In this document: piece after piece, positions 22,012 to 64,000 of the stretch | How positions within the stretch are numbered: the stretch's first letter is position 1 | Layout of the letters: every line of letters begins with the position of its first letter | Source: Phymorhynchus buccinoides | Taxonomy: Eukaryota; Mollusca; Gastropoda; Neogastropoda; Raphitomidae | Assembly (NCBI GenBank): GCA_017654935.2 | Contig: CM065686.1 | Coordinates: 27,660,591-27,724,590, forward strand | Direction: 5' to 3' | DNA: 64,000 bases | Notes under the pieces: model-generated | Database searches by the model: none | Told to the model about the DNA's origin: nothing | The model's input: only the letters and a program-made list of their open reading frames with translations | Translations under genes and position numbers: made by a program

Positions 22012-23080
22012 TTAACAGGTAACTGGAGTGTTTGCCACAACAATGCGCTTGATGGCGAAGGAATCGTCATCTCTCCTTGTTGAGTAGTCACGAAGATAAA
22101 AACTCAAAAAGGTGTTGTGTGAACGCCACATGGCGGCCTCCAGGATCTTGGTCAGGGGAACTCCTCTTATGAGAGCCAGGGAGGTACTGATGGCTCTAAT
22201 CTCGTGTGCTCTGATAGGGTTTGAAGGGAGAGTGGAAGAAAACTTAGAATAGGCAGTTCGAACTAAGTCTATTAGCCAACGAGAAATAGTTGGTTTAGCA
22301 ATGTCCTTTTGAGAATTCTCATTCAAGGAAATGAAGAGGCGACGCCTCGAACCTCGGAAAGGACTAGTACGATAGAGATAGAACTTCAAACACCGGACTG
22401 GACAGAGAAAAATCTCTGAATCGTCGTCACAAAGCACAGAGTTCAAACTGGAGATGACAACGAGAGAAGCCCTAAACTCCGAAATGAGTGAGAGAGTGAC
22501 TGAGGAACCAGACGAATTGAACTCAATATCACGCGACAATCCACTGAAAGCATGAATACTACTGATCCTATTTGCCGAAGCAAGAGCTAGCAAAAGAAGA
22601 GTCTTATAAGTCAGTAGCTTGAGCAAGAGAGACTGAAGAGGTTCACATGAATCTCGTAGAAAGTTAAGGACCAGAAAAATGTCCCACTGAGGAACACGGG
22701 TGCCGTAAGCCTCACAGCGTCAATGAAATGAGAAACCTGTGGGGAAGCAAGAGAATCTACAGAGCGAATACCCAAAGTCATGGAGATGGTGCTACTAATA
22801 GCAGCTTTGTAGCCAGCCAGCCAGTGTCTGCGCCGTCAGGTTTTTATAAAAAAAATAAGTGTGACAAAAATTCAACAAATTGAACCGAAGAGGGATGAAG
22901 AGGGTCTATCTTCTTTCCCTAACAAAACAAAAACCAGATGCGCCAACGTAAACTGTACAAAGAATTAGTGCTCTTGCGTCTAGAAGAGAGGAGTTCAACT
23001 GCTCTTATGGAGAAACCTTGTTTCTTCAGGCCCATACTTATAGTAACCAGGCGGTCAGATTGAGGACCGCTGGATTTGGA
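22012..23080 (-). pseudogene. DIRS-D1 tyrosine recombinase, near-complete but frameshifted
   Basis: The catalytic half (22012-22626) is open and keeps every expected residue: the first Arg in ANRISSIHAFSG, the HxxR box in PIRAHEIRAISTSLALIRG, and the Tyr in WRSHNTFLSFYLRDYS. Upstream, SLYSLRWRIWFLFC (near 22935) marks the SAM-like N-terminus. VSHFIDAV near 22720 is out of frame with the catalytic half, and the segment around 22690-22918 has frame changes. One or a few indels therefore inactivated it. Confidence 0.8.
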
Positions 23081-24873
23081 TGGCCGACGTTTGTCCTTGG
23101 CTGCACGAGTGTCCTTGGAGACAGGTGCAGATGCAGCGGGGCAGCCCTCTGGCAACCATGGACTCGATGGCCAATAGGGAGTGACCAAAATGAGTTGAAG
23201 GGACTCCCGAGAGAACTTCTCCAACACCCTTGGGATCAGGGGTGTTGGAGGGAAGGCGTACGCAAACATGTTTGTCCAAGGGACCGTGAAGGCATTCCGG
23301 GCAAAGGCATCCTTGTCCCGAATGGGCGACACATACAGTGGCAGCCAAGCACTGTACCTCGTGGCAAAAAGGTCCAGCCACGGCTTGCCCCACTCTTTCC
23401 AGACAGGAGGGCCTGGTGAGCAATGGTCCATTCTGTTGGAATGACCTGGGACGACCAGCTCAACTGATCGACTATGACATTTAGTTTGCCGGGGACAAAC
23501 TCTATAGTGATCACAATATCCTGCTTGTGAGCCCACAAGAGGATAGACTCTGCTGCTAGAGACAACGGGATGGACCTCGTTCCCCCTTGACGACGCAGGT
23601 GCGAAAGACAAGTCGTGTTGTCTCCCGACACAGTCACCCATTTCCCGACCAGAAGGGGAGCGAAGTGGATGAGAGCCAGACGCACTGCCTCCATTTCCAA
23701 GAGGTTGATGTGCAGACCTTGGAAGTCTTGAGACCAGAGACCGGAAATCTTTTCCCCCCAGATGGGCTCCCCAGCTCGAAAGAGAGGCATCCGTGAACAA
23801 GAAGAGCTGGTCGCACAGGAGGCGAATTGGCACAGAACTGCCAATCCACTCCGGATCCAACCACTGTGTGGAATTGGAGGAACCAAGTCCCGAGAGGCAC
23901 TGAGTCTTCTAGTCGTGACATGTCCGGGAAAAGGGCGGAAATTTGCTTCTAGAGAGGTCTTTTGTGCAACCTCCACAGAGGGAGAAGGTCTGCCATAGAC
24001 TCCATGAGACCTAAGACTCTGAGACCTTGACGAAGAGTTATGGACTGAGAAAGGAGAAGAGCGTTCAACGTCCGAGTCAACGAAAGAACACGCTCCTGAG
24101 TGGGAGACACTTGGAAACTCACAGTGTCGAAGACCATCCCCAAGTAGGTGAATCTCTGCTTGGGAGTCAGGTCTGACTTTTTGTCGTTCACCTGGAAGCC
24201 GAGTTTCGTGGCCAGAAAATTCAATTCCTGAGTGTGACTGAGACAACCTGTCTAACTCGAGTTCAAACCAGTCATCGAGGTAAACTTTGACGTATACCTC
24301 TTTCCCGAGCGATGACCGCAAACTGCCTGGTCACTTTGGAGAATATCCATGGGGCCAAGGATAGGCCGAAGGGGAGAGCCGTGAACTGAAGAACCTTCCC
24401 ATTCCAGACAAAGCGGAGGAAGTGTCTCCTTGAGGGATGGATGAGAATATGAAAATAGGCGTCTCTCAAATCTATTGAGGTAGCCCAATCGTTGACTTGG
24501 ATAGTCTGCCGGATGGAAAACGCTGTTTCCATTTTGAACTTCACTGGGCGAATTAACTTGTTGAGTGGTGACAAGTCTAGCACTGGCCGAGAAACCCTCC
24601 CGACTTTTTTGGGACAGTAAAAAGCCGGGAGTAAAAACCCGGGCCCGGGTTTTCGACTTGAACTACCACTCCTTTGACGAGCAAAGAATCGACTTCTTCT
24701 TGAAGAATCCTGAACCTTTCCGGATCCACCGGAGCGGGGAAGGAAATGGGATCTTGGGACAGGGGAGGTTCCTGCAGGAACAGAAACCGAAAATCCGCCC
24801 GCACCACCCGAAGTATCCAACCGTTCTCGACTAACTCCTGCCAGGCAGGAAAGGAGTAGCCCAGAGCTCCCAC
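22980..24873 (-). pseudogene. DIRS-D1 pol: RT, RNase H, methyltransferase-like
   Basis: RT: PISFPAPVDPERFRILQEEV, LDLSPLNKLIRPVKFKMETA, SIDLRDAYFHI with the first Asp, FGLSLAPWIF, VYLDDWFELE, and KKSDLTPKQRFTYLGMVFD. RNase H: LFTDASLSSWG, LLEMEAVRLAL, VSGDNTT and PGKLNVIVDQLSW. Methyltransferase-like: LDLFATRYSAW, AYAFPPTPLIPRVLEKF and LILVTPYWPSSPWLPE. The frame changes at least four times (near 24595, 24300, 24240 and 23900), so it cannot make one protein. Domain order matches DIRS1 elements. Confidence 0.85.
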
Positions 24874-25490
24874 GCTGGAAGGTTGAACGGCTGGATCGAC
24901 TTCGGGAGATACGGGCTCTACCGAAAAAGCTGCTGTTTCGGTTTGAACGACCTGTTAGGTCGTCCACCCCGAAAGGAAGACCTTCCTCTGAAAGGAAGCG
25001 AGCCACGAGACGAGTAGGCCTGAGCCTTGGAGAGCCACCGCGTTGAGACTGATGGTGGCGAAAAGGCTGGGACAAAGGCTGGTGACTTGAGCACTGAGAA
25101 GAGGGCATGGCCTCTGCACGAAAACGTTTGGCAACAGCCTTGTACATGGCGTCTTGAGTTGACTCCGCTTTCCGCTTAGACGCTGAGTCAATGGATATAT
25201 ACAGAAAAGATCTGCCAAAGAGTCCCACCCGAGGGAGAGGGAGAGAACGGAGCTTCTCTTTCTTCACTGAGGACAATCTACACGAAGACCGATTCAAGAC
25301 TGAGTCCCTACGGAGCGCTGCGATCTGAAGCCTGAGATGTGAGACAGTGTCAGTCAGGCTAGAGAGAGATTCTCCCAGGAGAGAAATGAGAGATCCTACC
25401 GAAGTAGCTTCAATCTCTTCATACAACTGGAAATCCGCTGGATACCCCGTGGGTGATTTTCCCAACAAACAGGTGAGAGAATGAAGGAAC
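24865..25490 (-). pseudogene. DIRS-D1 ORF1 (gag-like), C-terminal part
   Basis: FLHSLTCLLGKSPTGYPADF, SVGSLISLLGESLSSLTDTV and IAALRRDSVLNRSSCRL match the conserved ORF1 block of DIRS-E. The C-terminus is rich in Arg and Ser (SQRGGSPRLRPTRLVARF), suited to nucleic-acid binding. ORF1 overlaps the start of pol in a different frame, as in E. The N-terminal half is gone beyond 25490. Confidence 0.75.
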
Positions 25491-25608
25491 AAGACAGTTC
25501 ATTGGAGAAAGTGTACTGTTCATCTGGTGACATAATGTTAGCACTTTTGGCACTCTTTGTTTCCCCAGTCAGAACTTTCAACCCTTGCCACGCATCCCTC
25601 ACATTGCC
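25490..25608 (-). pseudogene. LINE fragment, inverted 5' part
   Basis: On minus this reads GNVRDAWQGLKVLTGETKSA and PDEQYTFSNEL, a segment found between the endonuclease and RT of RTE-like LINE ORF2 proteins. It points opposite to the C-terminal part that follows directly at 25609. The head-on arrangement with loss of the RT between fits twin priming during LINE insertion. Confidence 0.65.
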
Positions 25609-26060
25609 TGAAAGCACAAAGATCAAGGTCTATTCCACCTGCGTGCTGAGTACTCTTCTTTACTCCAGCAATACATGGACCACCTACGCCAGGCAGGAAA
25701 AGAGACTGACGCATCTCAGGCATCCGTTGGCAGGACAAAATTCCCAACACGGATGTCCTCAACCGTGCGGGACTGCAGTCTATCCATGCTCTCCTGAGTC
25801 AACGCCGCCTGCAATGGCTTGGCCATGTACGACACATGGAGGATGGTCGCATTCCGAAGGACTTCCTGTACGGCGAGCTCACTCAAGGGAAACGACATCA
25901 GGGTCGTCCAAGGCTACGCTTCAAAGATCTTAGATGACTGCAAGCGCGACCTGAAGAGCACAGGCATCAACCCTGACACCTGTGAAAGTATAGCTGAGGA
26001 GAGAGGATCCTGGAGGATCCATGCAAAAAGGAAAAAACCCCATGGTTTTCAACTGACAAA
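25609..26060 (+). pseudogene. LINE ORF2 C-terminal fragment (RTE-like)
   Basis: STKIKVYSTCVLSTLLYSSN at the start is the post-RT segment. After a small indel near 25715 the frame changes to RWQDKIPNTDVLNRAGLQS, LQWLGHVRHMEDGRIPKDF and GKRHQGRPRLRFKD, ending ERGSWRIHAKR near 26025. It is dead by truncation and frameshift. The R1/R2 copies of this locus break at 25730 inside this fragment. Confidence 0.75.
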
Positions 26061-28640
<2,580 letters not shown>

Positions 28641-28654
28641 CACCGACTATCTAT

Positions 28655-28784
28655 GAAAAGCCTCTAGTGTCTTGAAAACTTATTATCGATGCTGTATTGA
28701 ATCTGTTCTTACTGTTTCTTTTATGTGCTGGTTTGGAAGTCTGAATGTAAGGAGTCAGCGAGTGCTGAGTGACATGGTGAATGT
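28655..28784 (+). pseudogene. CR1/Jockey-like LINE ORF2, part upstream of the DIRS-E insertion
   Basis: Reads SVLKTYYRCCIESVLTVSFM, then CWFGSLNVRSQRVLSDMVN, the region after RT in CR1/Jockey-type ORF2. The frame is cut at the TGT 28782-28784 where DIRS-E starts. It resumes at 37048 with codons for VCSKVVSERQKSLEV, in phase if one TGT is kept. The two halves are therefore one LINE split by DIRS-E. Confidence 0.7.
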
Positions 28785-29160
28785 TTGATTTAGATTAATA
28801 TATCTATCTATTCTATCTATATACTTACCGTTTCACTATGAACTGAGTTTACTCTTCCAACTTGGGGCAATTGCCAAATTACCAAATACCATAGTCTAAA
28901 AAAGACTATAAATTTCTTCCCTTGGCACAGATGCTGTGCGTTTAGCCACCGGAAGTCCCATATGTAGCCACTTCCGTGGAGGCTATTTCAACTCAGGATA
29001 AATTTTCCTGAAACTTGATCAAACAATGGTTCAAAGGTGGGAGGATGGGTGGGAACCTTTTCTCGTAGTGAAATGGTAAGTATATAGATAGAATAGATAG
29101 ATATATTAATCTAAATCAAACAATCTATTCTATCATGTTACCGTTTCACTACGAACTGAG
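28782..29160 (-). repeat. DIRS-E 3' terminal repeat and ICR
   Basis: 28840-28995 is the inverse of about 35175-35361. The ICR (29063-29160) fuses an inverse of the 3' edge (ending CTAAATCAAACA) to an inverse of the 5' edge (AATCTATTCTATCATG), with a single ACA at 29120-29122 where the genomic ends each carry one. This is the classic DIRS1 arrangement for bridging the ends during circle formation. A purine tract, GGGAGGATGGGTGGGAACC, sits at 29039-29057. Confidence 0.88.
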
Positions 29161-29384
29161 TTGATTGCCAACGAGGAGGTGGGCATAGAATCATTGTTGA
29201 TGCCATCAAAAGAAACAACAACATTTTTTTAACAATACCACCCACCCGAGAGGAACCCCAATGCCGGGGTATCCATTGGTAGGTCTCCTGGAAACGGGAC
29301 CACTTGTACAAATCACAAAAACCCATTCATTTCCCCAAACAAGCATGCATATGCATACAAACCACACTACCCCAACAAGTTACC

Positions 29385-30464
29385 TTAATTCAAGGAGACC
29401 GGGGTCTGAGCCAGAACCGCCTTTTTGATGCCGAAGGTGTCGTCCTGCCTGAGGGACGAGTAGTGCCTGAGGTAGAAGCTACTGAAGGTGGACTGGGACC
29501 TCCAGTAGGCTGACTCCATGATGCTGGCCAAAGGAACCCCCTTGGTCAAGGCGAGAGAGGCACTGATAGCTCTAATCTCATGAGCCCTTATCGGGTTAAG
29601 GGGCAAGGCTGTGTCGGCATGGGTATAGGCTAATTTAATAGTAGAAATTAACCAACGAGAAATGGTGGACTTGATTATGTCCTTTGAATATTTCTCATTC
29701 AAGGAGACGAACAGTCTCCGTCGTTGCCCCCTGAAAGAAGAAGTTCTCTTCAAATAGAACTTAATAGCTCTGACTGGACACAAGAACCTATCCTCGTCAT
29801 CCTGTGAGAGGATCTGCTTAAGGCTCTGAATTGTGACAGAAGGAGAAGAGGTCTGGGAGAGCTGGTTCTTAGCCCGGAACTCTGGCAAGAAAGACAGTGT
29901 CACAGATTGGGGATTAGAACTGAACTCTATGTCCCTATCTAAACCGCTAAGAGCGTGGACGCAGCTAACACACCGAGCCGTAGCTAGGGAGACCAGAAAG
30001 ACAGTCTTGAAGGTTAGCAACTTAAGCGACAATGACGACATGGGTTCGCAGACATCCCTAAGGAACGACAGGACAAGAAAGATATCCCATTGAGGAAACC
30101 TAACCGACTGAGTAACCGAAAGGTTGCGAACTGCATCAATCACATGCGACACCTCTATGGAGCTCGAGAATGAAGGAGACTTCTTTCCCCTGGATACAGC
30201 TACTGTATGAGCAACTGCTGCCTTGTAGCCGTTGAGAGTTTGAGCCAACAGACCCCTATCAAAATGCAGATGAGAGAGGAATTGGGCGAACTCAGAGCCT
30301 GAAGGGTTCAGAGGAGGGATACCGTGAGACGAGCAGAAAACAAACCAAGAGGCCCACCTTAAGTCGTAAAGTTTGTTCGTACTCTGTCTCCTGGCTTTCA
30401 ACATGAGGTCAATCATTCTTGGAGGAATTCCACGTGATCGCAGAGCTGACCGCATAGTAGCCAT
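29385..30464 (-). CDS. DIRS-E tyrosine recombinase, intact
   Basis: A 359-codon product from ATG 30464 (MATMRSALRSRG); the frame stays open upstream to 30971 but there overlaps pol and lacks family similarity. It integrates circular element DNA. SAM-like N-terminal region with NKLYDLRWASWFVFC; first catalytic Arg in TARCVSCVHALSG; second box PIRAHEIRAISASLALTKG with HxxR; Tyr in WRSQSTFSSFYLRHYSS. All expected catalytic residues are present. The gene lies after pol and overlaps its last 50 or so bases. Likely translated by reinitiation or from a spliced RNA; the sequence does not say which. Confidence 0.9.
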   Translation of the reverse strand: MATMRSALRSRGIPPRMIDLMLKARRQSTNKLYDLRWASWFVFCSSHGIPPLNPSGSEFAQFLSHLHFDRGLLAQTLNGYKAAVAHTVAVSRGKKSPSFSSSIEVSHVIDAVRNLSVTQSVRFPQWDIFLVLSFLRDVCEPMSSLSLKLLTFKTVFLVSLATARCVSCVHALSGLDRDIEFSSNPQSVTLSFLPEFRAKNQLSQTSSPSVTIQSLKQILSQDDEDRFLCPVRAIKFYLKRTSSFRGQRRRLFVSLNEKYSKDIIKSTISRWLISTIKLAYTHADTALPLNPIRAHEIRAISASLALTKGVPLASIMESAYWRSQSTFSSFYLRHYSSLRQDDTFGIKKAVLAQTPVSLN

Positions 30465-32428
30465 GCGGTCAGCTGAAATGTCTCTGGGCTCGCGTGTCCG
30501 ACTCCTGTGCGTGGCTGGAGCAGGGTGTGCTCTGTCAGGTGCAGACTGATGGGTGGCACATGGGAGAGGTTGACGAGCTCGGGGAACCACGGGCTTGACT
30601 CCCAGAGAGGGGCGATGAGGATCAAGCGTGGCTTGTCGCGGAAGTATTTCTCGAGGACTTTCGGGACTAGTGATGTCGGAGGGTAGGCGTATGCCGACAT
30701 GCCTGTCCAAGGTATGGAGAAGGCGTTGCGCGCCAGTGCCTGAGGGTCCCTCATAGGTGAAACATAAAGCTGAAGTCTTGAATTGTACTTTGTGGCGAAC
30801 AAGTCCACATGAGGCTTTCCCCAGGTTTCCCACAGAGGCTGAAGAGACTGGTGCGCTATAGTCCATTCTGTCGGAAGGATCTGTCCCTTCCGGCTGAGCT
30901 GGTCCGCCAGAACGTTGAGTTTCCCGGGGACATACTCCACAGAGAGGAAGGTGTTGTTGGCCTGAGCCCACAGAAGAATCTCTTCCGCCTTCTCCGACAG
31001 GGGCACGGAGCGCGTGCCGCCCTGGCGACGCAAGTACGAAAGGGCCGTGGTGTTGTCGCCGCAGACGGTGACCCAGAAGTCCGAGAGGAGGTGAGCGAAC
31101 GCTTTGAGAGCTAGGGACACTGCTTCCAGCTCTAGCAGATTGATGTGTAGGAGAGACTCCGACGGGGTCCAGACGCCTGAAACCTCCTCATCGTCTAAAT
31201 GCGCTCCCCATCCAGCTGTAGATGCATCCGTGTGGAGGAATCGCTGCTGCTGCAGCGGACAGATGGGAACTGAGCTGTTGAGCCAGGAGAGACTTGTCCA
31301 TTGAGCCGTAGATTCCAGGAACCAGGGGCCTAGTTCCATCTGGTGATCGAGAGGCACATGGGAGATCGCCCTGGCTGCAAGATGGCGTTGAAGAGGCCTC
31401 TTGTGAACTCTGGCGAGAGGGAGTAGGTCTGCTACGGACTCCATCAGGCCGAGAAGCCGAAGAAGCTGACGGGCTGAAGCCGAGGTTTTCTGTCTGAGGA
31501 GGGACACTGAACTCAGGAGGTTGTGGACTCGCTCCTGAGACGGGTGGACACAGAACCGCACTGAATCGAACACCATCCCTAGGTAAGAGAAGGTGGTCGA
31601 GGGGACGAGGTCCGACTTCTTTTCGTGGATCTTGAAGCCCAAGGACCGAGAAAGTTCTATCAGAATGTTTGTCTGGGACTGACACAAGCTTCATGAAGAG
31701 GCCAGAAGGAGCCAATCGTCGAGGTAGATGCGCAGGCGAAGGGACTTCGCCCTGGCAAGGCGGGCTAACTCCTTGACGACTCTTGTGAAGATCCAAGGGG
31801 CTGGGGACAGTCCAAACGGAAGGGCCACAAACTGGTACGTTCGTTCTTGCCAGACGAACCTCAGGAAGCGATGGCGCGAAGGATGAATGGCCACATGAAA
31901 GTAGGCGTCCCTGAGGTCGATGGAAGTCGACCAATCGTTGGGGTGAATTGCAAGACGGATGGAAGCTGCTGTTTCCATCTTGAATTTGGGGGTCCGGATG
32001 AATCTGTTCAGGGGGGAGAGGTCCAGGACTGGACGGAACTCCCCATTCTTCTTGGGGACCACAAAAAGTCTTGAGTAAAACCACGGGTCCGAGGGGACCA
32101 CTTGGACGATGGCTGACTTCTGGAGAAGCGACTCGACTTCCTTTTGAAGGGCGTTGAACTTCGCTTGGTCCGTGGGAGGGGGAAAGGAGATGGGGGAGGA
32201 AGACAGGGGAGGTTCCTGAACAAACTGGAACCGGAAGCCTGCCCGCACGACCTGAAGGATCCAGGGGCTCGAGACCAAGTGTTCCCATGCTGGAAGGCAT
32301 TTCAGCAGAGAACCTGCACTTGAGTCGGCCATGAGTCCCGGATCCCCCAAAGGTGGTACGGGCTTTACTGAAAAGGCTGCTTCTGTCCCACGAACGGCGC
32401 TCGGGAACGCCGAGCAGAGCCGGGCCAA
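30413..32428 (-). pseudogene. DIRS-E pol: RT, RNase H, methyltransferase-like, with one in-frame TGA
   Basis: 672 codons in one frame, interrupted only by TGA at 31693-31691. RT: PISFPPPTDQAKFNALQKEV, LDLSPLNRFIRTPKFKMETA, SIDLRDAYFHVAIHPSR, FGLSPAPWIF, IYLDDWLLLASS (the stop follows immediately), then KKSDLVPSTTFSYLGMVFD. RNase H: HTDASTAGWG, LLELEAVSLAL, VCGDNTTALSYL and PGKLNVLADQLSR. Methyltransferase-like: VDLFATKYNSR, AYAYPPTSLVPKVLEKYF and LILIAPLWESSPWFPE. DIRS-A has Arg at the stop position, so a CGA to TGA change is likely. Without suppression the product ends just after the YLDD motif. Confidence 0.88.
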
Positions 32429-34947: not shown

Positions 34948-35361
34948 GCTGTCACTAGTGTCAGGGGCAACGACCGAACGACCAGTTCACACAATTTCAA
35001 AAATCAATATATCACCAAATACACAAGAAACAAATCAAATATTACTTCTAAAACACTAGCCGACCAAACCTGCACCCCAATGGGGTATGGGAACACAGAT
35101 AAAGGCGGGATGGCAAAGAAATCCAAAGTTTAAAGCAATAAAAAACAGAGAGGGAAGAAAAAGATGGCGCCCCAAAAGTTGGAAAATTTATTCTGAGTTG
35201 AAATAGCCTCCACGGAAGTGGCTACATATGGGACTTCCGGTGGCTAAACGCACAGCATCTGTGCCAAGGGAAGAAATTTATAGTCTTTTTTAGACTATGG
35301 TATTTGGTAATTTGGCAATTGCCCCAAGTTGGAAGAGTAAACTCAGTTCGTAGTGAAACGG
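34948..35361 (-). promoter_or_regulatory. DIRS-E 5' terminal repeat and leader
   Basis: The repeat (about 35175-35361, plus 37027-37047 beyond the solo LTR) contains TATAAATTT read on minus, overlapping a perfect stem ATAGTCT/AGACTAT with a 5-base A-rich loop at about 35280-35298. A GGCGCCATCTT motif on minus lies near 35162-35172 at the inner edge. TATA plus leader makes this the likely promoter. The solo LTR separates the outer 21 bp from the rest and may disturb it. Confidence 0.65.
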
Positions 35362-37021: not shown

Positions 37022-37047
37022 AACGGTAACATGATAGAATAGATTGT

Positions 37048-37264
37048 GTGCAGCAAGGTTGTGAGTGAAAGGCAAAAGAGTCTGGAAGTGTTGTATGCTG
37101 AGCGAGTGGTGCGAAAGGCCAAGCAGATAGCGACTGATGAGTGTCATGTTCTTGCCCACCATTATGAACTTTTGCCATCAGGACGCAGGTATCGAACTTT
37201 CAAACTAAAATCACGGGCACAAAAAACTTTCCTACCACGTTCTATCCATCTCTTAAATTCATGA
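37048..37264 (+). pseudogene. CR1/Jockey-like LINE ORF2 C-terminus (right half of split LINE)
   Basis: Reads VCSKVVSERQKSLEV, then ELLPSGRRYRTFKLKSRAQK and TFLPRSIHLLNS before a stop at 37262-37264. The SGRRYR and FLPR-I-LLNS pattern closes CR1/Jockey-type ORF2 proteins. Together with 28655-28784 it is one reading frame interrupted by DIRS-E. Confidence 0.72.
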
Positions 37265-38283: not shown

Positions 38284-38351
38284 TTAATGAGTTTTACTAC
38301 AAACGTTACCAATGCCATCAGCTTATGCCTAGATTCTTATAAATCTCTCGT

Positions 38352-38397
<46 letters not shown>

Positions 38398-38750: not shown

Positions 38751-38799
38751 CATATTTCTCTCTCTCTCTCTACACCCCAAGAAATGTAAATAGTTACTT

Positions 38800-44639: not shown

Positions 44640-44643
44640 TGAA

Positions 44644-46534: not shown

Positions 46535-46618
46535 GAGGCCCCCCGAAGAAAAGATTCTGGTACCGGAATCTTCCTGTGGAACGCCGACTCCACTTTCGAC
46601 TTGGGTAACAGGGACAAA

Positions 46619-48817: not shown

Positions 48818-49063
48818 GGTTGTAAATACAACTATTCAAAATAAAAACAAAGCTGCTGAGTTGAATGTATCAAACAACACTTAACTATTTCAGCATAAAC
48901 AGAAATAGCATGCACATCAAAATAAAGTCATAAATAGCATTCAAACAAATCAAATCAAAACACAGTGAACCAAATCACAATAACTTTCCCAGTGGACACA
49001 AGATCAGTTTTGAAAAGGAACTACCGTTTGAATTGAAATTTGTTAGACTTTATGAAAAAAAAT

Positions 49064-49083
49064 ATCCCGGACGCGAGCCCCCA
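49064..49083 (-). promoter_or_regulatory. Primer binding site, R1 copy
   Basis: Six bases inside the 5' LTR edge, minus strand, reads TGGGGGCTCGCGTCCGGGAT. It resembles the proline-tRNA type site but has an extra CG in the middle. Confidence 0.65.
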
Positions 49084-49089
49084 ATTAGA

Positions 49090-51606: not shown

Positions 51607-51845
51607 CCAACGGATGCCTGAGATGCGTCAGTCTCTTTTCCTGCCTGGCGTAGGTGGTCCATGTATTGCTGGAGTAAAGAAGAGTACTCAGCACGCAGGT
51701 GGAATAGACCTTGATCTTTGTGCTTTCAGGCAATGTGAGGGATGCGTGGCAAGGGTTGAAAGTTCTGACTGGGGAAACAAAGAGTGCCAAAAGTGCTAAC
51801 ATTATGTCACCAGATGAACAGTACACTTTCTCCAATGAACTGTCT
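51607..51845. pseudogene. LINE fragment at the deletion join, R1 copy
   Basis: Inverse of 25490-25730: LINE C-terminal piece (KVYSTCVLSTLLYSS on minus) followed by the opposed VRDAWQGLKVLTG piece on plus. The part beyond 25730 in the left copy is missing. It proves that this join formed by deletion in a locus already carrying the twin-primed LINE. Confidence 0.8.
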
Positions 51846-54536: not shown

Positions 54537-54600
54537 GCTACTAATAGCAGCTTTGTAGCCAGCCAGCCAGTGTCTGCGCCGTCAGGTCTTTATAAAAAAA
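54482..54600. repeat. P3 centre: near-spacerless fold-back
   Basis: CTGGCTGGCTACAAATAGCTGCT is followed by ACTAAT and AGCAGCTTTGTAGCCAGCCA. The left flank carries two extra bases (AT) next to the stem. In D1 (22790-22815) the same place reads GGTGCTACTAATAGCAGC, so the fold-back formed at or beside this short AGCAGCT element. Confidence 0.85.
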
Positions 54601-57237
54601 ATAAGTGTGACAAAAATTCAACAAATTGAACCGAAGAGGGATGAAGAGGGTCTATCTTCTTTCCCTAACAAAACAAAAACCAGATGCGCCAACGTAAACT
54701 GTACAAAGAATTAGTGCTCTTGCGTCTAGAAGAGAGGAGTTCAACTGCTCTTATGGAGAAACCTTGTTTCTTCAGGCCCATACTTATAGTAACCAGGCGG
54801 TCAGATTGAGGACCGCTGGATTTGGATGGCCGACGTTTGTCCTTGGCTGCACGAGTGTCCTTGGAGACAGGTGCAGATGCAGCGGGGCAGCCCTCTGGCA
54901 ACCATGGACTCGATGGCCAATAGGGAGTGACCAAAATGAGTTGAAGGGACTCCCGAGAGAACTTCTCCAACACCCTTGGGATCAGGGGTGTTGGAGGGAA
55001 GGCGTACGCAAACATGTTTGTCCAAGGGACCGTGAAGGCATTCCGGGCAAAGGCATCCTTGTCCCGAATGGGCGACACATACAGTGGCAGCCAAGCACTG
55101 TACCTCGTGGCAAAAAGGTCCAGCCACGGCTTGCCCCACTCTTTCCAGACAGGAGGGCCTGGTGAGCAATGGTCCATTCTGTTGGAATGACCTGGGACGA
55201 CCAGCTCAACTGATCGACTATGACATTTAGTTTGCCGGGGACAAACTCTATAGTGATCACAATATCCTGCTTGTGAGCCCACAAGAGGATAGACTCTGCT
55301 GCTAGAGACAACGGGATGGACCTCGTTCCCCCTTGACGACGCAGGTGCGAAAGACAAGTCGTGTTGTCTCCCGACACAGTCACCCATTTCCCGACCAGAA
55401 GGGGAGCGAAGTGGATGAGAGCCAGACGCACTGCCTCCATTTCCAAGAGGTTGATGTGCAGACCTTGGAAGTCTTGAGACCAGAGACCGGAAATCTTTTC
55501 CCCCCAGATGGGCTCCCCAGCTCGAAAGAGAGGCATCCGTGAACAAGAAGAGCTGGTCGCACAGGAGGCGAATTGGCACAGAACTGCCAATCCACTCCGG
55601 ATCCAACCACTGTGTGGAATTGGAGGAACCAAGTCCCGAGAGGCACTGAGTCTTCTAGTCGTGACATGTCCGGGAAAAGGGCGGAAATTTGCCTCTAGAG
55701 AGGTCTTTTGTGCAACCTCCACAGAGGGAGAAGGTCTGCCATAGACTCCATGAGACCTAAGACTCTGAGACCTTGACGAAGAGTTATGGACTGAGAAAGG
55801 AGAAGAGCGTTCAACGTCCGAGTCAACGAAAGAACACGCTCCTGAGTGGGAGACACTTGGAAACTCACAGTGTCGAAGACCATCCCCAAGTAGGTGAATC
55901 TCTGCTTGGGAGTCAGGTCTGACTTTTTGTCGTTCACCTGGAAGCCGAGTTTCGTGGCCAGAAAATTCAATTCCTGAGTGTGACTGAGACAACCTGTCTA
56001 ACTCGAGTTCAAACCAGTCATCGAGGTAAACTTTGACGTATACCTCTTTCCCGAGCGATGACCGCAAACTGCCTGGTCACTTTGGAGAATATCCATGGGG
56101 CCAAGGATAGGCCGAAGGGGAGAGCCGTGAACTGAAGAACCTTCCCATTCCAGACGAAGCGGAGGAAGTGTCTCCTTGAGGGATGGATGAGAATATGAAA
56201 ATAGGCGTCTCTCAAATCTATTGAGGTAGCCCAATCGTTGACTTGGATAGTCTGCCGGATGGAAAACGCTGTTTCCATTTTGAACTTCACTGGGCGAATT
56301 AACTTGTTGAGTGGTGACAAGTCTAGCACTGGCCGAGAAACCCTCCCGACTTTTTTGGGACAGTAAAAAGCCGGGAGTAAAAACCCGGGCCCGGGTTTTC
56401 GACTTGAACTACCACTCCTTTGACGAGCAAAGAATCGACTTCTTCTTGAAGAATCCTGAACCTTTCCGGATCCACCGGAGCGGGGAAGGAAATGGGATCT
56501 TGGGACAGGGGAGGTTCCTGCAGGAACAGAAACCGAAAATCCGCCCGCACCACCCGAAGTATCCAACCGTTCTCGACTAACTCCTGCCAGGCAGGAAAGG
56601 AGTAGCCCAGAGCTCCCACGCTGGAAGGTTGAACGGCTGGATCGACTTTGGGAGATACGGGCTCTACCGAAAAAGCTGCTGTTTCGGTTTGAACGACCTG
56701 TTAGGTCGTCCACCCCGAAAGGAAGACCTTCCTCTGAAAGGAAGCGAGCCACGAGACGAGTAGGCCTGAGCCTTGGAGAGCCACCGCGTTGAGACTGATG
56801 GTGGCGAAAAGGCTGGGACAAAGGCTGGTGACCTGAGCACTGAGAAGAGGGCATGGCCTCTGCACGAAAACGTTTGGCAACAGCCTTGTACATGGCGTCT
56901 TGAGTTGACTCCGCTTTCCGCTTAGACGCTGAGTCAATGGATATATACAGAAAAGATCTGCCAAAGAGTCCCACCCGAGGGAGAGGGAGAGAACGGAGCT
57001 TCTCTTTCTCCACTGAGGACAATCTACACGAAGACCGATTCAAGACTGAGTCCCTACGGAGCGCTGCGATCTGAAGCCTGAGATGTGAGACAGTGTCAGT
57101 CAGGCTAGAGAGAGATTCTCCCAGGAGAGAAATGAGAGATCCTACCGAAGTAGCTTCAATCTCTTCATACAACTGGAAATCCGCTGGATACCCCGTGGGT
57201 GATTTTCCCAACAAACAGGTGAGAGAATGAAGGAACA
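54543..57237 (-). mobile_element. DIRS-D1 segment, R2 copy
   Basis: Minus-strand twin of 51845-54536, with the same domains, the same frame breaks and identical long translated blocks. The recombinase start is at about 54600-54780, methyltransferase-like region to 55170, RNase H to 55610, RT 55695-56619 and ORF1 C-terminus to 57237. Confidence 0.85.
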
Positions 57238-57476
57238 AGACAGTTCATTGGAGAAAGTGTACTGTTCATCTGGTGACATAATGTTAGCACTTTTGGCACT
57301 CTTTGTTTCCCCAGTCAGAACTTTCAACCCTTGCCACGCATCCCTCACATTGCCTGAAAGCACAAAGATCAAGGTCTATTCCACCTGCGTGCTGAGTACT
57401 CTTCTTTACTCCAGCAATACATGGACCACCTACGCCAGGCAGGAAAAGAGACTGACGCATCTCAGGCATCCGTTGG
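57238..57476. pseudogene. LINE fragment at the deletion join, R2 copy
   Basis: Direct equivalent of 25490-25730, ending at TTGG 57473-57476 where DIRS-E ORF1 begins. Same breakpoint as R1. Confidence 0.8.
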
Positions 57477-57920
57477 GAATGCTCAGAGAAAGTGTCCATG
57501 CAAGAAGGGTCAACTGGGTAACCCGCTTCGTCCGTGAGAGGTCCATGTGTAGATCGTTCAGTTTGTCCAGTCATTTTCGAGGTGGGCCCTGGTTCGACTA
57601 AAAGAGCGGACAGAGAAGAGGAGGGGACCAAAACCATGCCCTTGCTTTTGAAACCCGCTATCATCTCGTCAACAAGAGAGCTAGAATCCACTACCGTAAT
57701 GACCTGCTCCTGAGAAACTAGGAGAAGGAAGAGCCGCAGGAGAGGGGGATGAACCGCTTTTCTTAGAACTAGACGACCTGTGCTTAGCCTCTTTCTGACT
57801 AGACGAACGACTAGAAGAAGAACTAGCAGGAAGGAACTTGCCCTTCTCATCCCGTTTGGGATTGAGAGGGTCAGAAGAAACACCAGACTTAGTCGTGAGA
57901 ACCGGGTCGACAGAAGACAT
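57477..57920 (-). pseudogene. DIRS-E ORF1 N-terminal part, R2 copy, with 2-bp deletion
   Basis: Starts MSSVDPVLTTKSGVSSDP at 57920. A 2-bp loss near 57716 shifts the frame after LPSPS; the frame of the remainder (SQEQVITVVDSSSLVDEM) is reached only from another start. The R1 copy lacks this lesion, so it arose after the arms separated or is a sequencing error. Confidence 0.78.
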
Positions 57921-58335
57921 GCTGTCACTAGTGTCAGGGGCAACGACCGAACGACCAGTTCACACAATTTCAAAAATCAATATATCACCAAATACACAAG
58001 AAACAAATCAAATATTACTTCTAAAACACTAGCCAACCAAACCTGCACCCCAATGGGGTATGGGAACACAGATAAAGGCGGGATGGCAAAGAAATCCAAA
58101 GTTTAAAGCAATAAAAAACAGAGAGGGAAGAAAAAGATGGCGCCCCAAAAGTTGGAAAATTTATTCTGAGTTGAAATAGCCTCCACGGAAGTGGCTACAT
58201 ATGGGACTTCCGGTGGCTAAACGCACAGCATCTGTGCCAAGGGAAGAAATTTATAGTCTTTTTTAGACTATGGTATTTTGGTAATTTGGCAATTGCCCCA
58301 AGTTGGAAGAGTAAACTCAGTTCGTAGTGAAACGG
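57921..58335 (-). promoter_or_regulatory. DIRS-E 5' terminal repeat and leader, R2 copy
   Basis: Same as 34948-35361. It ends AACGG at 58331-58335, which is the target duplication of the LTR element that follows. Confidence 0.65.
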
Positions 58336-60001
58336 TGTGACATAAGTGTCCCGCGCGACCCGCTTTCTTTATTTCTTATCTACACCCCCCCCCCTTTCTC
58401 CCCACCCCCCCCCCCCCCCCCCCCAACCCTCTCTCCTTTTCATTTCTCTGTCCGGCCGCCACGTTAATTGCCACCCACCATCTAAAGAACGCCGAATAAG
58501 GCAATTATCTCTTTGAAGCAAGATCTATCTACCCATCACAAGAAAGTGACAACCACGGTTATCTCCCTTTGAAGATGGTTTTGCCGTTCCGAACACGAGA
58601 AGGATTTTGAATGTCGGCACGTGATAAGGATGTAATAGGCGCGTGATTGTTCGGTACATTTAGAACAGCAATCTTGTGACGTGTGGACTGTAATACACCA
58701 ATAGCAGGCTTTCATTGTTTGAAAGTGAAGGCTATAATTGGCGTAGTGAGAAAAAGTTTTTCACACAAGACGCTGAAACTGACTAGAGCAACACCTCTCC
58801 CAGCCAGAATAGCCCACCTAGTAAGTCTTATTGATGACTGGTGATTGAGACTGGTTGTTTGTTTGACTCTAGTTTTGATCTAGATCCTATGTTCAATGAT
58901 GAATAAGGAGTAGATAGATATGCTATAGAAAAGAAGTGGTAAACATTCTATTCTATTTATGTGCACTGATTATTTGTGTGTGTGTGTTTTTGACTTTAAC
59001 ACTTTTGGTACCAGAACCGGAGTTTATGCCTACTAACCCTTTTGTCTATTTTTAGTAGGAAACCTATGGGCCGCAATCTTGCACTTTATGATACCCTTCC
59101 TTTCCAGGTGTTGGATGGAGAGTGATGATGGATTGATCACCTTTTATGTTTTTCTGATCTCAGTTTGTTAACTGAAATTCAGTTTATTTATTAAATAGTG
59201 CTATTGTACAAGGGAAGCCTTCTAGCCGGTTGGGATTCACTAATGCCCTGCCGACTGAAGCCCCTTGTCTCTAAGCCATAGAGATCTACATCCACCTTCT
59301 CCTGTGATTATCAGCAGGGCATCGTGGGCCGGAAGATCATCCCGGACTCCACCAAGCACCAAGACGGGATCGCCGCCAAGACGACCCGCACCCAGAATCC
59401 GCGAGGAGACCACGCCTGAACCGTGCCATCCCGCGAAGCCGTAATCGGAACGACTGGGAGCTACTCTCACCTGACGAGCAAGCCCAGAACTTGAAACAGC
59501 TAAGTCCACCTGACTGCGCCAATCATTTGAACTTTCCTACGGACACCGAAGATAATTAGTAACCCTTCCGGCATGGGGCGAACCTTATAGAAAGACAAAA
59601 GTCTTGTGAATCCTTTCGGATTTCATTGTTTTTTTATCCATATTTTGTTTTGGCGCCATTGAGCTGCTTTATTATTATTGTTGCATAATCTTATGCAGAT
59701 TTTGGGAGTAAATAAAATACAAGTGTCAAATAATCCTGAACCCTTTGGTCAGACTGATGAGAGTGGGAGTCTTGTAATTTCATGTAAAACCCTACTTCTC
59801 TCTGTCTGCCATTTAGAGCAATTCAACCACTTGTATTTCTTACAACCATACGAGCCAGAACCCGGGCACAAATATAAATTTATTAGATGAAAAGGGGCCG
59901 GGAAAGTTGCTCATCTCCCATACCCTAGAGAAGTGGGCTAAAGGCAAATTTTCTAAAGTCTTCCCTAGGGACTTAGCCTTTTAACCCATTACCTCGTCAC
60001 A
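58336..60001 (+). repeat. 5' LTR, R2 copy
   Basis: 1,666 bp, TGTGACATAAG to ACCTCGTCACA. Promoter candidate TATAATT near 58733; polyadenylation signal AATAAA at 59711-59716. Short frames of 60-90 codons are shared by all LTR copies but show no domain and are not called as genes. Confidence 0.92.
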
Positions 60002-60007
60002 TCTAAT

Positions 60008-60027
60008 TGGGGGCTCGCGTCCGGGAT
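60008..60027 (+). promoter_or_regulatory. Primer binding site, R2 copy
   Basis: TGGGGGCTCGCGTCCGGGAT, six bases after the 5' LTR. Proline-tRNA type with two extra central bases. Confidence 0.65.
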
Positions 60028-60273
60028 ATTTTTTTTCATAAAGTCTAACAAATTTCAATTCAAACGGTAGTTCCTTTTCAAAACTGATCTTGTGTCCACT
60101 GGGAAAGTTATTGTGATTTGGTTCACTGTGTTTTGATTTGATTTGTTTGAATGCTATTTATGACTTTATTTTGATGTGCATGCTATTTCTGTTTATGCTG
60201 AAATAGTTAAGTGTTGTTTGATACATTCAACTCAGCAGCTTTGTTTTTATTTTGAATAGTTGTATTTACAACC

Positions 60274-62475
60274 ATGGCTGAGATTGTTAAACTTAGGAGG
60301 GAACTTAAAGAATGGGGAGAATCTCTAGGAATGTCAGGCCAAGAGTTAGCCAATTTTGTCATATCTGAATATGACAAAGAGAAAGCTCGCGAGGTGGCTG
60401 AGAAAGACAAACAGAGAGCTCATGAGGCTCAAGAGGCTGATAAAGCTCGCGAGGACGCTGAGAAAGACAAACAGAGAGCAGAGCAAGAGCAAATCCGTAC
60501 TCATGAGTTAAGGCAGAGACAACTAGTGCAGGATGCCAAAAATAAAGAACTCGAACTTGAGGCCACTGAGCGAGAAAAAGCGCGAGACCATGAGCTAGCT
60601 ATGAAGCAGCTTGAAAACTCAGCAGACTCTGAGACTGCTGCCCCTCAAAATTTTCCCCCTCCCATTCATACCTCAGCCATGACCTTCACATTGGAGGCAT
60701 TCAATGAGGCAACCCAGTCTATCGATGCATTCCTCGATAGATTTGAAAGACTGGCCCAGGAATTTGAGCTTGCTCCGGAAAAGTTCAACCTCAAGCTTGC
60801 CCAAAGTCTCAGGGGTGTGGCTTATGAGGTATACAGTAAACTTCCGTCAAGCCAAATTACCGACTACCCAGCTTTGAAAGAAGCCCTGCTCAACAGATAC
60901 GAGTTGACAGCGGACGCCTACCGGAAAAAGTTCCGGTCAACCAGAAAAGGTAGGGGAGAGTCCTATGCCCAATTTTCAGATAGACTGGGGAACTATCTGA
61001 CAAAATGGGTGTCCCTTTCTGCCAAAACAGAGTCCTATGAGGATCTCCGGGAACTGATGGTTGGCGAGCAACTGCGCGAAACCATGTCCCCAGAGTTACG
61101 CACCTTTACTGCCGAACAAGGTGCCACAACTCTGGCTGACCTCATCCAGCTAAGTGATAGGTACACTCTAGCCCATGATGAACCTAGCGCCCCTAAAAGG
61201 CCAAAACTGCAGCAAGTAGTTGGGTCCACTGGTTCACAGCAGAGCAGGTTTAACCCCAACTCCAACAGTGGGTCAAACAGTTCTACCCATGAACGACAAC
61301 CACTGGGACAACCCTTATTCTGCTCATACTGCAAGTCGAACACCCACAATCGGGATGACTGCAGGAAACTTGCTTACAAGCGGCAAAATGTTGCAACTAT
61401 GCAAGTCGTCTCGACTTCGCAGAATTGCACAAACCCCTCCCCAATCCAGTGTCCAGGCACACCGTCAGTCGTTGGACAGGCGACTGTCAACAACATCCCT
61501 GTTCAGTGTCTCTATGACACTGGACTGTCATGCGACGCCATTGTCTGCGGATCCCTAGTCCCCGCGTCAGCATACACGGGAGACTTCATCTCTCTGCAGG
61601 GCCCTGATGCTGCAATCCCCCCTTCCACTTTGCCAGTCGCCATAATCAATGTCGACACCAGATATGTTAAGGGACCCATCAAGGCAGTGCTCATGGACAG
61701 TCCTGTCTATGACCTCATACTGGGATCACAGTATGTGTTTTTAGGGCACCCCTCTCAACCTGCCCTAGTTTCAGCAGGATTCCCTTCTCCCCAATCCACA
61801 AACCAACTCCCTCCCTCCTTCCCAAAGAGCAAATCTCCCTCAGCAGGGAAGAAACCTCTCAACGCGGCAAACCAAATTGCCGCGCGAGCCAATCCAGATT
61901 GTCCCAAGTCCCCAAGTCCGCCACAACTTGGAAAATCCTTCCCAAGGAATGTCCGCCTAACGACCCAAGACCACTCGCCACAGGTACCTCAGGTGAAAGG
62001 CAGCACTGTACCCGCAAACACCCACCGAAGGTACTATCGGGACAGGCCGCCGCACATACAGCCGTCACCTACCCCTCCCTTTCAGCGAGTGGCAGTCGAC
62101 TTGGTCGGGCCTCTACCTCAACGGAAGAAGAAATTCCGGTACATAGTCACCGTGGTCGACATATGTACCATGAGGTGCGATGCCGCCCCAATCTCCTCAC
62201 TTGATGCTAGCCAGATAGCCGCGGCACTCAAAGCCATTTTCGCCCGAATCGGCCTACCAAACCACATCATCAGCAATGATGAATCCAGGCTAAAGGGGAA
62301 ACTCAGGCAAGAGGTGTTTGCTATTCTGCAATCAACCTTGGGACAACTCAACACAGGATTGCCGCAACAACCTCAGTCGGAATCCATTCCACTGATTTCC
62401 AACCCACCTGCTCCTTTGAACTCTGTGTTGCGACCAGATGTTCCACCATTCCAGCCGACCCAGTCTCCCCACTAA
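60274..62475 (+). CDS. Gag-protease-integrase polyprotein, R2 copy, 733 codons
   Basis: Open throughout from ATG 60274. Same domains as the R1 copy: coiled coil, SCAN-like capsid region, CCHC knuckle near residue 350, DTG protease near 414 with ILG motif near 475, and a truncated integrase core about 605-690. It differs by a one-residue insertion (LQQVVGS) and a few substitutions (SRFNPNS for SSGNPNS). Codons 691-733 (LNTGLPQQPQSES...) are low-complexity, unlike integrase. The open frame over 2.2 kb in a defective element is unexpected unless it is recent or still selected. Confidence 0.85.
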   Translation: MAEIVKLRRELKEWGESLGMSGQELANFVISEYDKEKAREVAEKDKQRAHEAQEADKAREDAEKDKQRAEQEQIRTHELRQRQLVQDAKNKELELEATEREKARDHELAMKQLENSADSETAAPQNFPPPIHTSAMTFTLEAFNEATQSIDAFLDRFERLAQEFELAPEKFNLKLAQSLRGVAYEVYSKLPSSQITDYPALKEALLNRYELTADAYRKKFRSTRKGRGESYAQFSDRLGNYLTKWVSLSAKTESYEDLRELMVGEQLRETMSPELRTFTAEQGATTLADLIQLSDRYTLAHDEPSAPKRPKLQQVVGSTGSQQSRFNPNSNSGSNSSTHERQPLGQPLFCSYCKSNTHNRDDCRKLAYKRQNVATMQVVSTSQNCTNPSPIQCPGTPSVVGQATVNNIPVQCLYDTGLSCDAIVCGSLVPASAYTGDFISLQGPDAAIPPSTLPVAIINVDTRYVKGPIKAVLMDSPVYDLILGSQYVFLGHPSQPALVSAGFPSPQSTNQLPPSFPKSKSPSAGKKPLNAANQIAARANPDCPKSPSPPQLGKSFPRNVRLTTQDHSPQVPQVKGSTVPANTHRRYYRDRPPHIQPSPTPPFQRVAVDLVGPLPQRKKKFRYIVTVVDICTMRCDAAPISSLDASQIAAALKAIFARIGLPNHIISNDESRLKGKLRQEVFAILQSTLGQLNTGLPQQPQSESIPLISNPPAPLNSVLRPDVPPFQPTQSPH

Positions 62476-62559
62476 TTTGTCCCTGTCGCCCAAGTCGAAA
62501 GTGGAGTCGGCGTTCCACAGGAAGATTCCGGTACCAGAATCTTTTCTTCGGGGGGCCTC
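62476..62559 (+). other. 3' untranslated end with purine tract
   Basis: Ends CTTCGGGGGGCCTC directly before the 3' LTR. The G run is the plausible polypurine primer for plus-strand DNA. Confidence 0.5.
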
Positions 62560-64000
62560 TGTGACGTAAGTGTCCCGCGCGACCCGCTTTCTTTATTTCT
62601 TATCTACACCCCCCCCCCCTTTCTCCCCTCCCCACCCCCCCCCCCTCTCTCCTTTTCATTTCTCTGTCCGGCCGCCACGTTAATTGCCACCCACCATCTA
62701 AAGAACGCCGAATAAGGCAATTATCTCTTTGAAGCAAGATCTATCTACCCATCACAAGAAAGTGACAACCACGGTTATCTCCCTTTGAAGATGGTTTTGC
62801 CGTTTCCGAACACGAGAAGGATTTTGAATGTCGGCACGTGATAAGGATGTAATAGGCGCGTGATTGTTCGGTACATTTAGAACAGCATCTTGTGACGTGT
62901 GGACTGTAATACACCAATAGCAGGCTTTCATTGTTTGAAAGTGAAGGCTATAATTGGCGTAGTGAGAAAAAGTTTTTCACACAAGACGCTGAAACTGACT
63001 AGAGCAACACCTCTCCCAGCCAGAATAGCCCACCTAGTAAGTCTTATTGATGACTGGTGATTGAGACTGGTTGTTTGTTTGACTCTAGTTTTGATCTAGA
63101 TCCTATGTTCAATGATGAATAAGGAGTAGATAGATATGCTATAGAAAAGAAGTGGTAAACATTCTATTCTATTAATGTGCACTGATTATTTGTGTGTGTT
63201 TTTGACTTTGGTACCAGAACCGGAGTTTATGCCTACTAACCCATTTGTCTATTTTTAGTAGGAAACCTATGGGCCGCAATCTTGCACTTTATGATACCCT
63301 TCCTTTCCAGGTGTTGGATGGGGAGTGATGATGGATTGATCACCTTTTATGTTTTACTGATCTCAGTTTGTTAACTGAAATTCAGTTTATTTATTAAATA
63401 GTGCTATTGTACAAGGGAAGCCTTCTAGCCGGTTGGGATTCACTAATGCCCTGCCGACTGAAGCCCCTTGTCTCTAAGCCATAGAGATCTACATCCACCT
63501 TCTCCTGTGATTATCAGCAGGGCATCGTGGGCCGGAAGATCATCCCGGACTCCACCAAGCACCAAGACGGGATCGCCGCCAAGACGACCCGCACCCAGAA
63601 TCCGCGAGGAGACCACGCCTGAACCGTGCCATCCCGCGAAGCCGTAATCGGAACGACTGGGAGCTACTCTCACCTGACGAGCAAGCCCAGAACTTGAAAC
63701 AGCTAAGTCCACCTGACTGCGCCAATCATTTGAACTTTCCTACGGACACCGAAGATAATTAGTAACCCTTCCGGCATGGGGCGAACCTTATAGAAAGACA
63801 AAAGTCTTGTGAATCCTTTCGGATTTCATTGTTTTTTTATCCATATTTTGTTTTGGCGCCATTGAGCTGCTTTATTATTATTGTTGCATAATCTTATGCA
63901 GATTTTGGGAGTAAATAAAATACAAGTGTCAAATAATCCTGAACCCTTTGGTCAGACTGATGAGAGTGGGAGTCTTGTAATTTCATGTAAAACCCTACTT
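62560..64000 (+). repeat. 3' LTR, R2 copy, partial
   Basis: Begins TGTGACGTAAG and continues to the window end without reaching its CA edge. It differs from the 5' LTR at a few positions, including a shorter GTGT run and loss of AACACTTT near 63210. Confidence 0.9.

What the first reader, a model, noticed from the sequence alone, without database searches (positions are those of the whole stretch)
22795..64000. One locus present three times in alternating orientation, with an 8.77-kb deletion shared by two copies
Reading both strands, the right half of the window is the left half again. L is 22795-40652, R1 (41425-54536) is inverted and R2 (54543-64000) is direct. R1 and R2 both lack L 25731-34501, joined at a TTGG microhomology (25727-25730 and 34498-34501), and both hold a full LTR element where L has a solo LTR. 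What first looks like a chimeric DIRS-E/LINE/DIRS-D1 transposon is simply this deletion. The pattern fits either repeated inverted duplication (breakage and fusion) or two haplotypes concatenated head to head.
Basis: seen in the sequence. Interest (0 to 1): 0.82.

Follow-up and report, generated by a model that had tools for sequence, protein, structure and literature searches.

The report
Tripled locus at scaffold gap, fold-back
The same stretch of transposon-rich DNA appears three times in alternating directions, but one join is only a run of unknown bases between two contigs and the other is a hairpin-type fold-back, so most likely two versions of one locus were placed side by side in the assembly and one of them folded back on itself; sequencing reads are needed to know whether any of it is real.

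Summary
The sequence observation holds. L (22790-40652), R1 (41153-54540, inverted) and R2 (54543-64000, direct, cut by the window end) are collinear copies. R1 and R2 share one 8,771-bp deletion joined at TTGG. L has a solo LTR where R1 has the complete LTR element, with the same AACGG flanks.

Three facts change the interpretation. (1) L and R1 are separated by exactly 500 N (40653-41152), and the same 63-bp minisatellite lies on both sides; their adjacency is scaffolding, not sequence. (2) R1/R2 is a spacer-free palindrome turning at a hairpin present in L (TGCTA-CTAA-TAGCA), a fold-back signature found in under 1% of simulated random fold-backs. (3) R1 and R2 differ: no difference from 9 to 3001 bp from the centre, then 38 events, 36 of them in the LTR element. 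L, R1 and R2 are three sequences, so two concatenated haplotypes alone do not suffice.

Best reading: false allelic duplication across the gap, plus a fold-back, artefactual or real. Reads were not available and the genome search did not complete. Ordinary to moderately interesting.

The parts
22790..40652 (+). Copy L (undeleted, solo LTR); ends at the N gap inside a 63-bp minisatellite
   Evidence: self-BLAST and alignment; N run begins at 40653
40653..41152 (.). Gap of exactly 500 N between the stretch with L (contig A) and the stretch with R1+R2 (contig B)
41153..54540 (-). Copy R1, inverted, with the 8,771-bp deletion and a full LTR element (homology to L from 41863, then minisatellite)
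54543..64000 (+). Copy R2, direct, with the same deletion; LTR element cut by the window end
54533..54551 (.). Centre of the R1/R2 palindrome: fold-back tip, loop CTAA, with two extra bases (TA) on the R1 side
22790..22803 (+). Hairpin in the unrearranged copy L at which the palindrome turns: stem TGCTA / TAGCA, loop CTAA
25731..34501 (+). Segment of L missing from both R1 and R2 (TTGG at 25727-25730 and 34498-34501)
51607..51610 (-). Deletion joint in R1 (TTGG)
57473..57476 (+). Deletion joint in R2 (TTGG)
28779..37050 (-). DIRS-type element of L: inverted terminal repeats 28827-29008 / 35181-35362, internal complementary region 29063-29162, RT ORF, a weak recombinase match, and an 860-aa ORF in the gag position (no Pfam match); right end split by the solo LTR
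22012..25492 (-). Second DIRS-like element: RT match in ORF 24272-25492 and neighbouring ORFs; the palindrome centre falls inside it
   Evidence: RVT_1 E 1.8e-06, 28.3 bits, just under the cut-off of 29.6; ORFs; recombinase reading of 22012-22626 by resemblance only (no Pfam match)
35362..37021 (+). Solo LTR in L, flanked by AACGG on both sides
44887..50745 (-). Full LTR retroelement in R1 (LTRs 44887-46534 and 49090-50745; gag ORF 46619-48817), same AACGG flanks
   Evidence: Retrotrans_gag and SCAN above cut-off
58336..64000 (+). Same LTR element in R2, outer LTR cut at 64000; gag ORF 60274-62475 open
40238..40652 (+). 63-bp minisatellite at the end of contig A
41481..41860 (-). Same 63-bp minisatellite near the start of contig B, reverse orientation (similarity reaches 41422)

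Best explanation
Two separate events make the pattern. First, contig A (L) and contig B (R1+R2) are two divergent versions (alleles) of one transposon-rich locus, both kept in the assembly and placed tail to tail across a 500-N gap at a minisatellite: a false heterotype duplication. Second, within the deletion-bearing version, R1/R2 is a fold-back: a DNA 3' end closed on itself at the hairpin with a 5-bp stem and a 4-nt loop, was extended on its own strand and gave a spacer-free palindrome. I think it slightly more likely that this happened in a library molecule, with the outer arms then assembled from other reads, than in the chromosome. Shown: the gap, the shared deletion, the hairpin, the identical inner 3 kb. 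Inferred: allelism, the fold-back mechanism and the in vitro origin.
For: Exactly 500 N between L and R1 with the same minisatellite on both sides. L and R1 differ in the right flank: 30 substitutions in 2,733 aligned bases for L 37022-39771, 48 in 3,013 if the indel-rich last stretch to 40083 is kept (sums), and by a solo/full LTR at one insertion site, as alleles do. Assembly gaps between the copies are described as a mark of false duplications (PMC9516828, passages). Fold-back: stem TGCTA/TAGCA with a 4-nt loop in L; a match of 5 bp or more occurs in 0.87% of 200,000 simulated close fold-backs. R1 and R2 share the deletion and all six single-base differences from L in the inner 2.9 kb, so they derive from one version. 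No R1/R2 difference from 9 to 3001 bp from the centre, then 38 events; 29 remain after leaving out the tip and nine C-tract events, P = 1.6e-5 if rates were uniform. Such a step is expected if one short palindromic molecule bridges two separately built arms. Palindromic reads and false inverted duplications in an assembly are documented (PMC6218980, passages; fold-back reads in PMC12870357, passages).
Against: No reads, depth or Hi-C could be examined. The stem at the centre is not what a missed adapter needs; it favours a physically folded molecule, in vivo or in vitro. PMC12870357 saw no systematic fold-back artefacts in its three PacBio samples and about 0.55-0.6% in nanopore genomic DNA, so an artefact that reaches an assembly would be uncommon. 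The outer R1/R2 differences look like real variation, not noise: both gag ORFs are open, one indel is of 3 bp, 5 of 8 changed codons are synonymous, so at least one further real version of this element must exist. The step at 3 kb lies close to a change of sequence class; outside the LTR element there are only 2 events in 3.8 kb, for which the step is weak (P = 0.05). L and R differ by only 0.2% in the inner 2.9 kb but 1.1-1.6% in the flank, a jump that simple allelism does not explain.
Confidence: 0.5

Rival explanations
1. R1/R2 is a real inverted duplication in this organism's chromosome, made by fold-back priming at a resected break, on the deletion-bearing haplotype; L is the other allele, misplaced next to it by scaffolding.
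For: 5-bp stem and 4-nt loop at the exact centre. Human fold-back junctions show 2-8 bp of inverted microhomology in 13 of 18 junctions without long repeats, and 4-6 bp are said to suffice in yeast (PMC3907307, passages); a 5-bp inverted repeat was used in yeast (PMC10622511, passages). Two extra bases about 8 nt from the turn. Real-looking differences between the outer arms.
Against: Simple ageing of a duplication predicts differences throughout the arms, but the inner 3 kb have none, so local homogenisation must be added. The human cases in PMC3907307 have spacers of 766 bp or more, not 4 nt.
Confidence: 0.33
2. All three copies are real: repeated inverted duplication in one chromosome, the 500-N gap hiding a second palindrome centre that could not be assembled.
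For: Both sides of the gap hold the same minisatellite in mirror orientation. Three different sequences L, R1, R2. That palindrome centres are hard to assemble is general knowledge.
Against: No sequence joins L to R1. L differs from R by a deletion, a solo LTR and 1.1-1.6% in the flank, which is much for a recent duplication but usual for alleles of a highly heterozygous organism (the last point is recalled).
Confidence: 0.12
3. Three haplotypes (pooled individuals or a polyploid) of one locus, concatenated.
For: L, R1 and R2 are three distinguishable sequences. LTR variants do not follow the copies: of 15 gap-free variable columns after alignment column 100, two group R1-inner with R2-outer and two group L with R1-outer.
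Against: Does not explain the hairpin at the R1/R2 centre nor the identical inner 3 kb.
Confidence: 0.05

Closest known systems
False heterotype duplication in genome assemblies (PMC9516828, abstract and passages seen)
   Same: Divergent versions kept as neighbouring copies with an assembly gap between them
   Different: Here the copies are inverted to each other and one of them is itself palindromic; read depth, a main criterion, could not be tested
Palindromic (fold-back) reads after amplification, missed SMRTbell adapters or in nanopore data (PMC6218980, PMC12870357, passages seen)
   Same: Spacer-free inverted copies, identical near the centre
   Different: A 5-bp stem in the unrearranged copy marks the centre, and the outer arms differ by real-looking variants
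Fold-back inverted duplications in human and yeast chromosomes (PMC3907307, PMC10622511, passages seen)
   Same: Short inverted repeat at the turning point
   Different: Loop of only 4 nt, against spacers of 766 bp or more in the human series; no chromosome-scale evidence here
DIRS1-like retrotransposons (PMC3266345, passages seen)
   Same: The element at 28779-37050 has inverted terminal repeats, an internal complementary region matching both ends, and RT
   Different: It is only the substrate of the rearrangement; its right end is split by a solo LTR, and the recombinase match is weak

Membership tests
False heterotype duplication | Assembly gap between the copies | tested here: met
   500 N at 40653-41152 between L and R1; for R1/R2 there is no gap, so that pair does not meet it
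False heterotype duplication | Haploid-level read depth, 1-copy k-mers, discordant linked reads | not testable with these tools
   No reads; the genome search unanswered
Fold-back inverted duplication | Short inverted repeat in the unrearranged sequence at the turning point | tested here: met
   TGCTA-CTAA-TAGCA at L 22790-22803; P(5 bp or more) 0.0087 for simulated close fold-backs, 0.0048 for spacers up to 5 kb
Fold-back inverted duplication | Present in the organism's chromosome (spanning molecules, copy gain) | not testable with these tools
   No reads
Palindromic read artefact | Arms from one molecule, so no true sequence differences | tested here: inconclusive
   Met from 9 to 3001 bp from the centre, not met beyond (38 events), but outer arms may come from other reads
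DIRS1-like retrotransposon (28779-37050) | Inverted terminal repeats and internal complementary region matching both ends | tested here: met
   Repeat of 182 nt, 99% complementary; 29063-29125 pairs with 28779-28841, 29117-29146 with 37021-37050 and 29140-29162 with 35340-35362
DIRS1-like retrotransposon (28779-37050) | Reverse transcriptase | tested here: met
   RVT_1, E 1.2e-12, 48.4 bits, above the cut-off of 29.6
DIRS1-like retrotransposon (28779-37050) | Tyrosine recombinase | tested here: inconclusive
   Phage_integrase E 0.043, 14 bits, below the cut-off of 27.1
DIRS1-like retrotransposon (28779-37050) | Methyltransferase domain | not tested
   No dedicated search made
DIRS1-like retrotransposon (28779-37050) | No target site duplication, 3-bp circular junction | not tested
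   Exact termini were not worked out

The most novel reading that the evidence does not exclude
A natural, inherited, spacer-free palindrome of more than 18 kb, made by snap-back synthesis at a hairpin with a 5-bp stem and a 4-nt loop inside a DIRS-like retrotransposon, whose inner 3 kb per arm are kept identical by arm-to-arm conversion while the outer arms, carrying an LTR element, diverge: a chromosome record of fold-back repair and of conversion that fades with distance from the centre.
Probability: 0.2. Interest if true: 0.5.

Novelty: new member of a known kind. Interest (0 to 1): 0.25.

Why it matters
If artefact, it is a clear warning: counts of genes, repeats and structural variants near such gaps are inflated, and an apparent chimeric transposon is only a deletion joint. 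It also shows how the two joins of an apparent triplication can be told apart from sequence alone. If the palindrome is real, it would be a natural fold-back duplication with the priming hairpin still readable in an unrearranged copy, and with a measurable gradient of arm identity.

Tried and rejected
Rejected: R as the ancestral state with L carrying an 8.77-kb insertion flanked by a TTGG target duplication. The 860-aa ORF of L and the terminal and complementary repeats of the DIRS-type element run across the point, so R is deleted. Rejected: independent LTR insertions in L and R; both have AACGG at the same place. Rejected: R1 as an exact copy of R2.

Left open: that the inner identity is only a matter of sequence class. 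Outside the LTR element there are just 2 difference events in 3,793 bp (P = 0.05). The P of 1.6e-5 assumes one rate over DIRS and LTR sequence and uses 29 events after leaving out 10 of 39 (1 at the tip, 9 in C-tracts). In the flank comparison I quote 2,733 bases and left out the indel-rich stretch 39772-40083 (18 more substitutions in 280 aligned bases); both figures are given.

Led nowhere: a protein search with the 860-aa ORF (7,983 candidates scored, none at E 0.001 or better; 1 of 3 searches used); the RT ORF in genome contigs and viral contigs (47 and 3 pattern matches, none confirmed). Seven paper searches were made, listing 3 of 3, 12 of 104, 12 of 32, 10 of 25, 10 of 12, 10 of 217 and 8 of 33 papers. 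I saw the listings only, apart from passages of seven papers. No listed title or abstract start named this locus, but without an organism name this is no proof of absence. Passages of PMC11226609 were seen and not used.
Full report
What was checked. Self-comparison of the window confirms three collinear copies in alternating orientation. L 22797-25730 matches R2 54543-57476 (99.8%) and, from 22799, R1 54540-51607 (99.7%). L 34498-37021 matches R1 51610-49090 and R2 57473-60001 (about 99%). L 35362-40083 matches R1 46534-41863 (97.5%). The segment L 25731-34501 is absent from both R1 and R2, with the same joint at TTGG; a match of 4 bp or more occurs in 1.7% of simulated deletions of that length. 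The matches run over kilobases at 97-99.8%; chance is not an explanation.

Direction of the differences. The deletion is derived in R. In L an 860-aa ORF, 32365-34947, is open across the point (it stands where a DIRS gag would, but has no Pfam match). The element 28779-37050 has the repeat plan of a DIRS1-like element: 182-nt inverted terminal repeats (28827-29008, 35181-35362) and an internal complementary region (29063-29162) that matches both ends (definition from passages of PMC3266345). Its RT is recognised by Pfam (E 1.2e-12), its recombinase only weakly (E 0.043, below cut-off). The LTR difference goes the other way. R1 holds a complete element, 44887-50745, flanked by AACGG on both sides, and L holds a solo LTR, 35362-37021, with the same AACGG flanks. 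One insertion was therefore reduced to a solo LTR in L. Each version has its own derived change, as two alleles would.

The L/R1 join. It is a run of exactly 500 N, 40653-41152. The sequence before it ends inside a 63-bp minisatellite (40238-40652); the sequence after it reaches the same minisatellite, in opposite orientation, after 328 bp by the tandem-repeat call (41481-41860) or about 270 bp by BLAST (from 41422). No base supports the adjacency. In the flank L 37022-39771, L and R1 differ at 30 of 2,733 aligned bases (1.1%); with the indel-rich stretch to 40083 it is 48 of 3,013 (1.6%; sums). In the inner DIRS segment L differs from both R copies at six single sites in 2,934 bp, all transitions. 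This jump from 0.2% to above 1% is not explained by simple allelism. Gaps between copies are listed as a mark of false duplications (PMC9516828, passages). I take this join to be scaffolding of two versions of the locus; that is inference.

The R1/R2 join. It is continuous sequence. The arms meet without a spacer at about 54541, inside a second DIRS-like element. The unrearranged copy L has TGCTA-CTAA-TAGCA there (22790-22803). R2 follows L from 22790 and R1 follows L from 22799, so the turn lies at a 5-bp stem with a 4-nt loop. R1 carries two extra bases (TA) about eight bases from the turn. In 200,000 simulated close fold-backs from this window's own sequence, 0.87% show 5 bp or more of such a match; with spacers up to 5 kb, 0.48% do. 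A 5-bp stem with a loop of 3-8 starts at 520 of 40,652 positions of contig A, so such hairpins are common, and the argument rests on the coincidence with the turn.

What the literature passages say. Human fold-back junctions show 2-8 bp of inverted microhomology (13 junctions), with spacers of 766 bp or more, and 4-6 bp are said to suffice in yeast (PMC3907307). DSB-induced cases in yeast centre on short inverted repeats, one of 5 bp (PMC10622511). In vitro, palindromic molecules arise in amplification and through missed adapters (0.5% of reads in a non-amplified PacBio control, part of them false positives), and an assembly of amplified DNA held numerous inverted duplications that were absent after correction (PMC6218980). 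Nanopore genomic DNA shows about 0.55-0.6% fold-back reads, while three PacBio samples showed no systematic ones (PMC12870357).

R1 against R2. Alignment over about 9.46 kb gives 39 difference events. One is the TA at the tip. There is none from there to 3,001 bp from the centre, and 38 lie beyond: 2 in the short DIRS piece and 36 in the LTR element (13 inner LTR, 8 internal, 15 visible outer LTR). Leaving out the tip and nine C-tract events, 29 remain, and the empty inner 3 kb has P = 1.6e-5 under one uniform rate. Counting only non-LTR sequence, the step rests on two events (P = 0.05). The outer differences look like true variation: both gag ORFs are open, one indel is in frame, and 5 of 8 changed codons are synonymous. 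LTR variants are scrambled between copies: of 15 gap-free variable columns after alignment column 100, two group R1-inner with R2-outer and two group L with R1-outer. That points to exchange between LTRs, or to mixing in assembly or polishing, which would also weaken the count of three true sequences.

Judgement. L, R1 and R2 are three sequences as printed. Two concatenated haplotypes cannot give three sequences in a diploid unless R1/R2 is itself a fold-back, the sample is mixed, or part of the R1/R2 difference is assembly error. The most economical account has two parts: a second version of the locus placed tail to tail across a gap, and a fold-back of the deletion-bearing version. The sequence favours a physically folded molecule over a mere missed adapter, but cannot tell a library molecule from a chromosome. 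The identical inner 3 kb fits a short palindromic molecule bridging separately built arms; it also fits arm-to-arm conversion near the centre of a real palindrome. I hold the first somewhat more likely.

Limits. The window's genome could not be searched and no reads are held. The palindrome's true length is unknown, because the window ends at 64000 inside R2.

Noticed in passing
1-3630 and 3713-7254: A second, probably older inverted pair with arms of about 3.6 kb, 96-97% alike, 82 bp apart, reaching the window start; unlike the R1/R2 palindrome it differs most near its centre and its outer end.
   Followed up: partly
12280-13962 and 16246-18013: A diverged direct duplication (83-92%, four pieces) about 4 kb apart, probably copies of one transposon.
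   Followed up: no
8667-9472: Tandem repeat of about 280-bp units, with ORFs over 200 aa on both strands.
   Followed up: no
20999-21858: Cluster of repeated and inverted short units (a 75-nt perfect inverted pair, spacing near 290 bp) beside the second DIRS-like element, perhaps its terminal and complementary repeats; a related inverted piece lies at 15062-15329.
   Followed up: no
44887-46534, 49090-50745, 58336-60001, 62560-64000, 35362-37021: LTR variants do not follow the copies: two sites pair R1-inner with R2-outer and two pair the solo LTR with R1-outer, suggesting exchange between LTRs or mixing during assembly.
   Followed up: partly
22797-25730 against 37022-40083: L and R differ by 0.2% in the inner DIRS segment but 1.1-1.6% in the right flank, a jump that simple allelic divergence does not explain.
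   Followed up: partly
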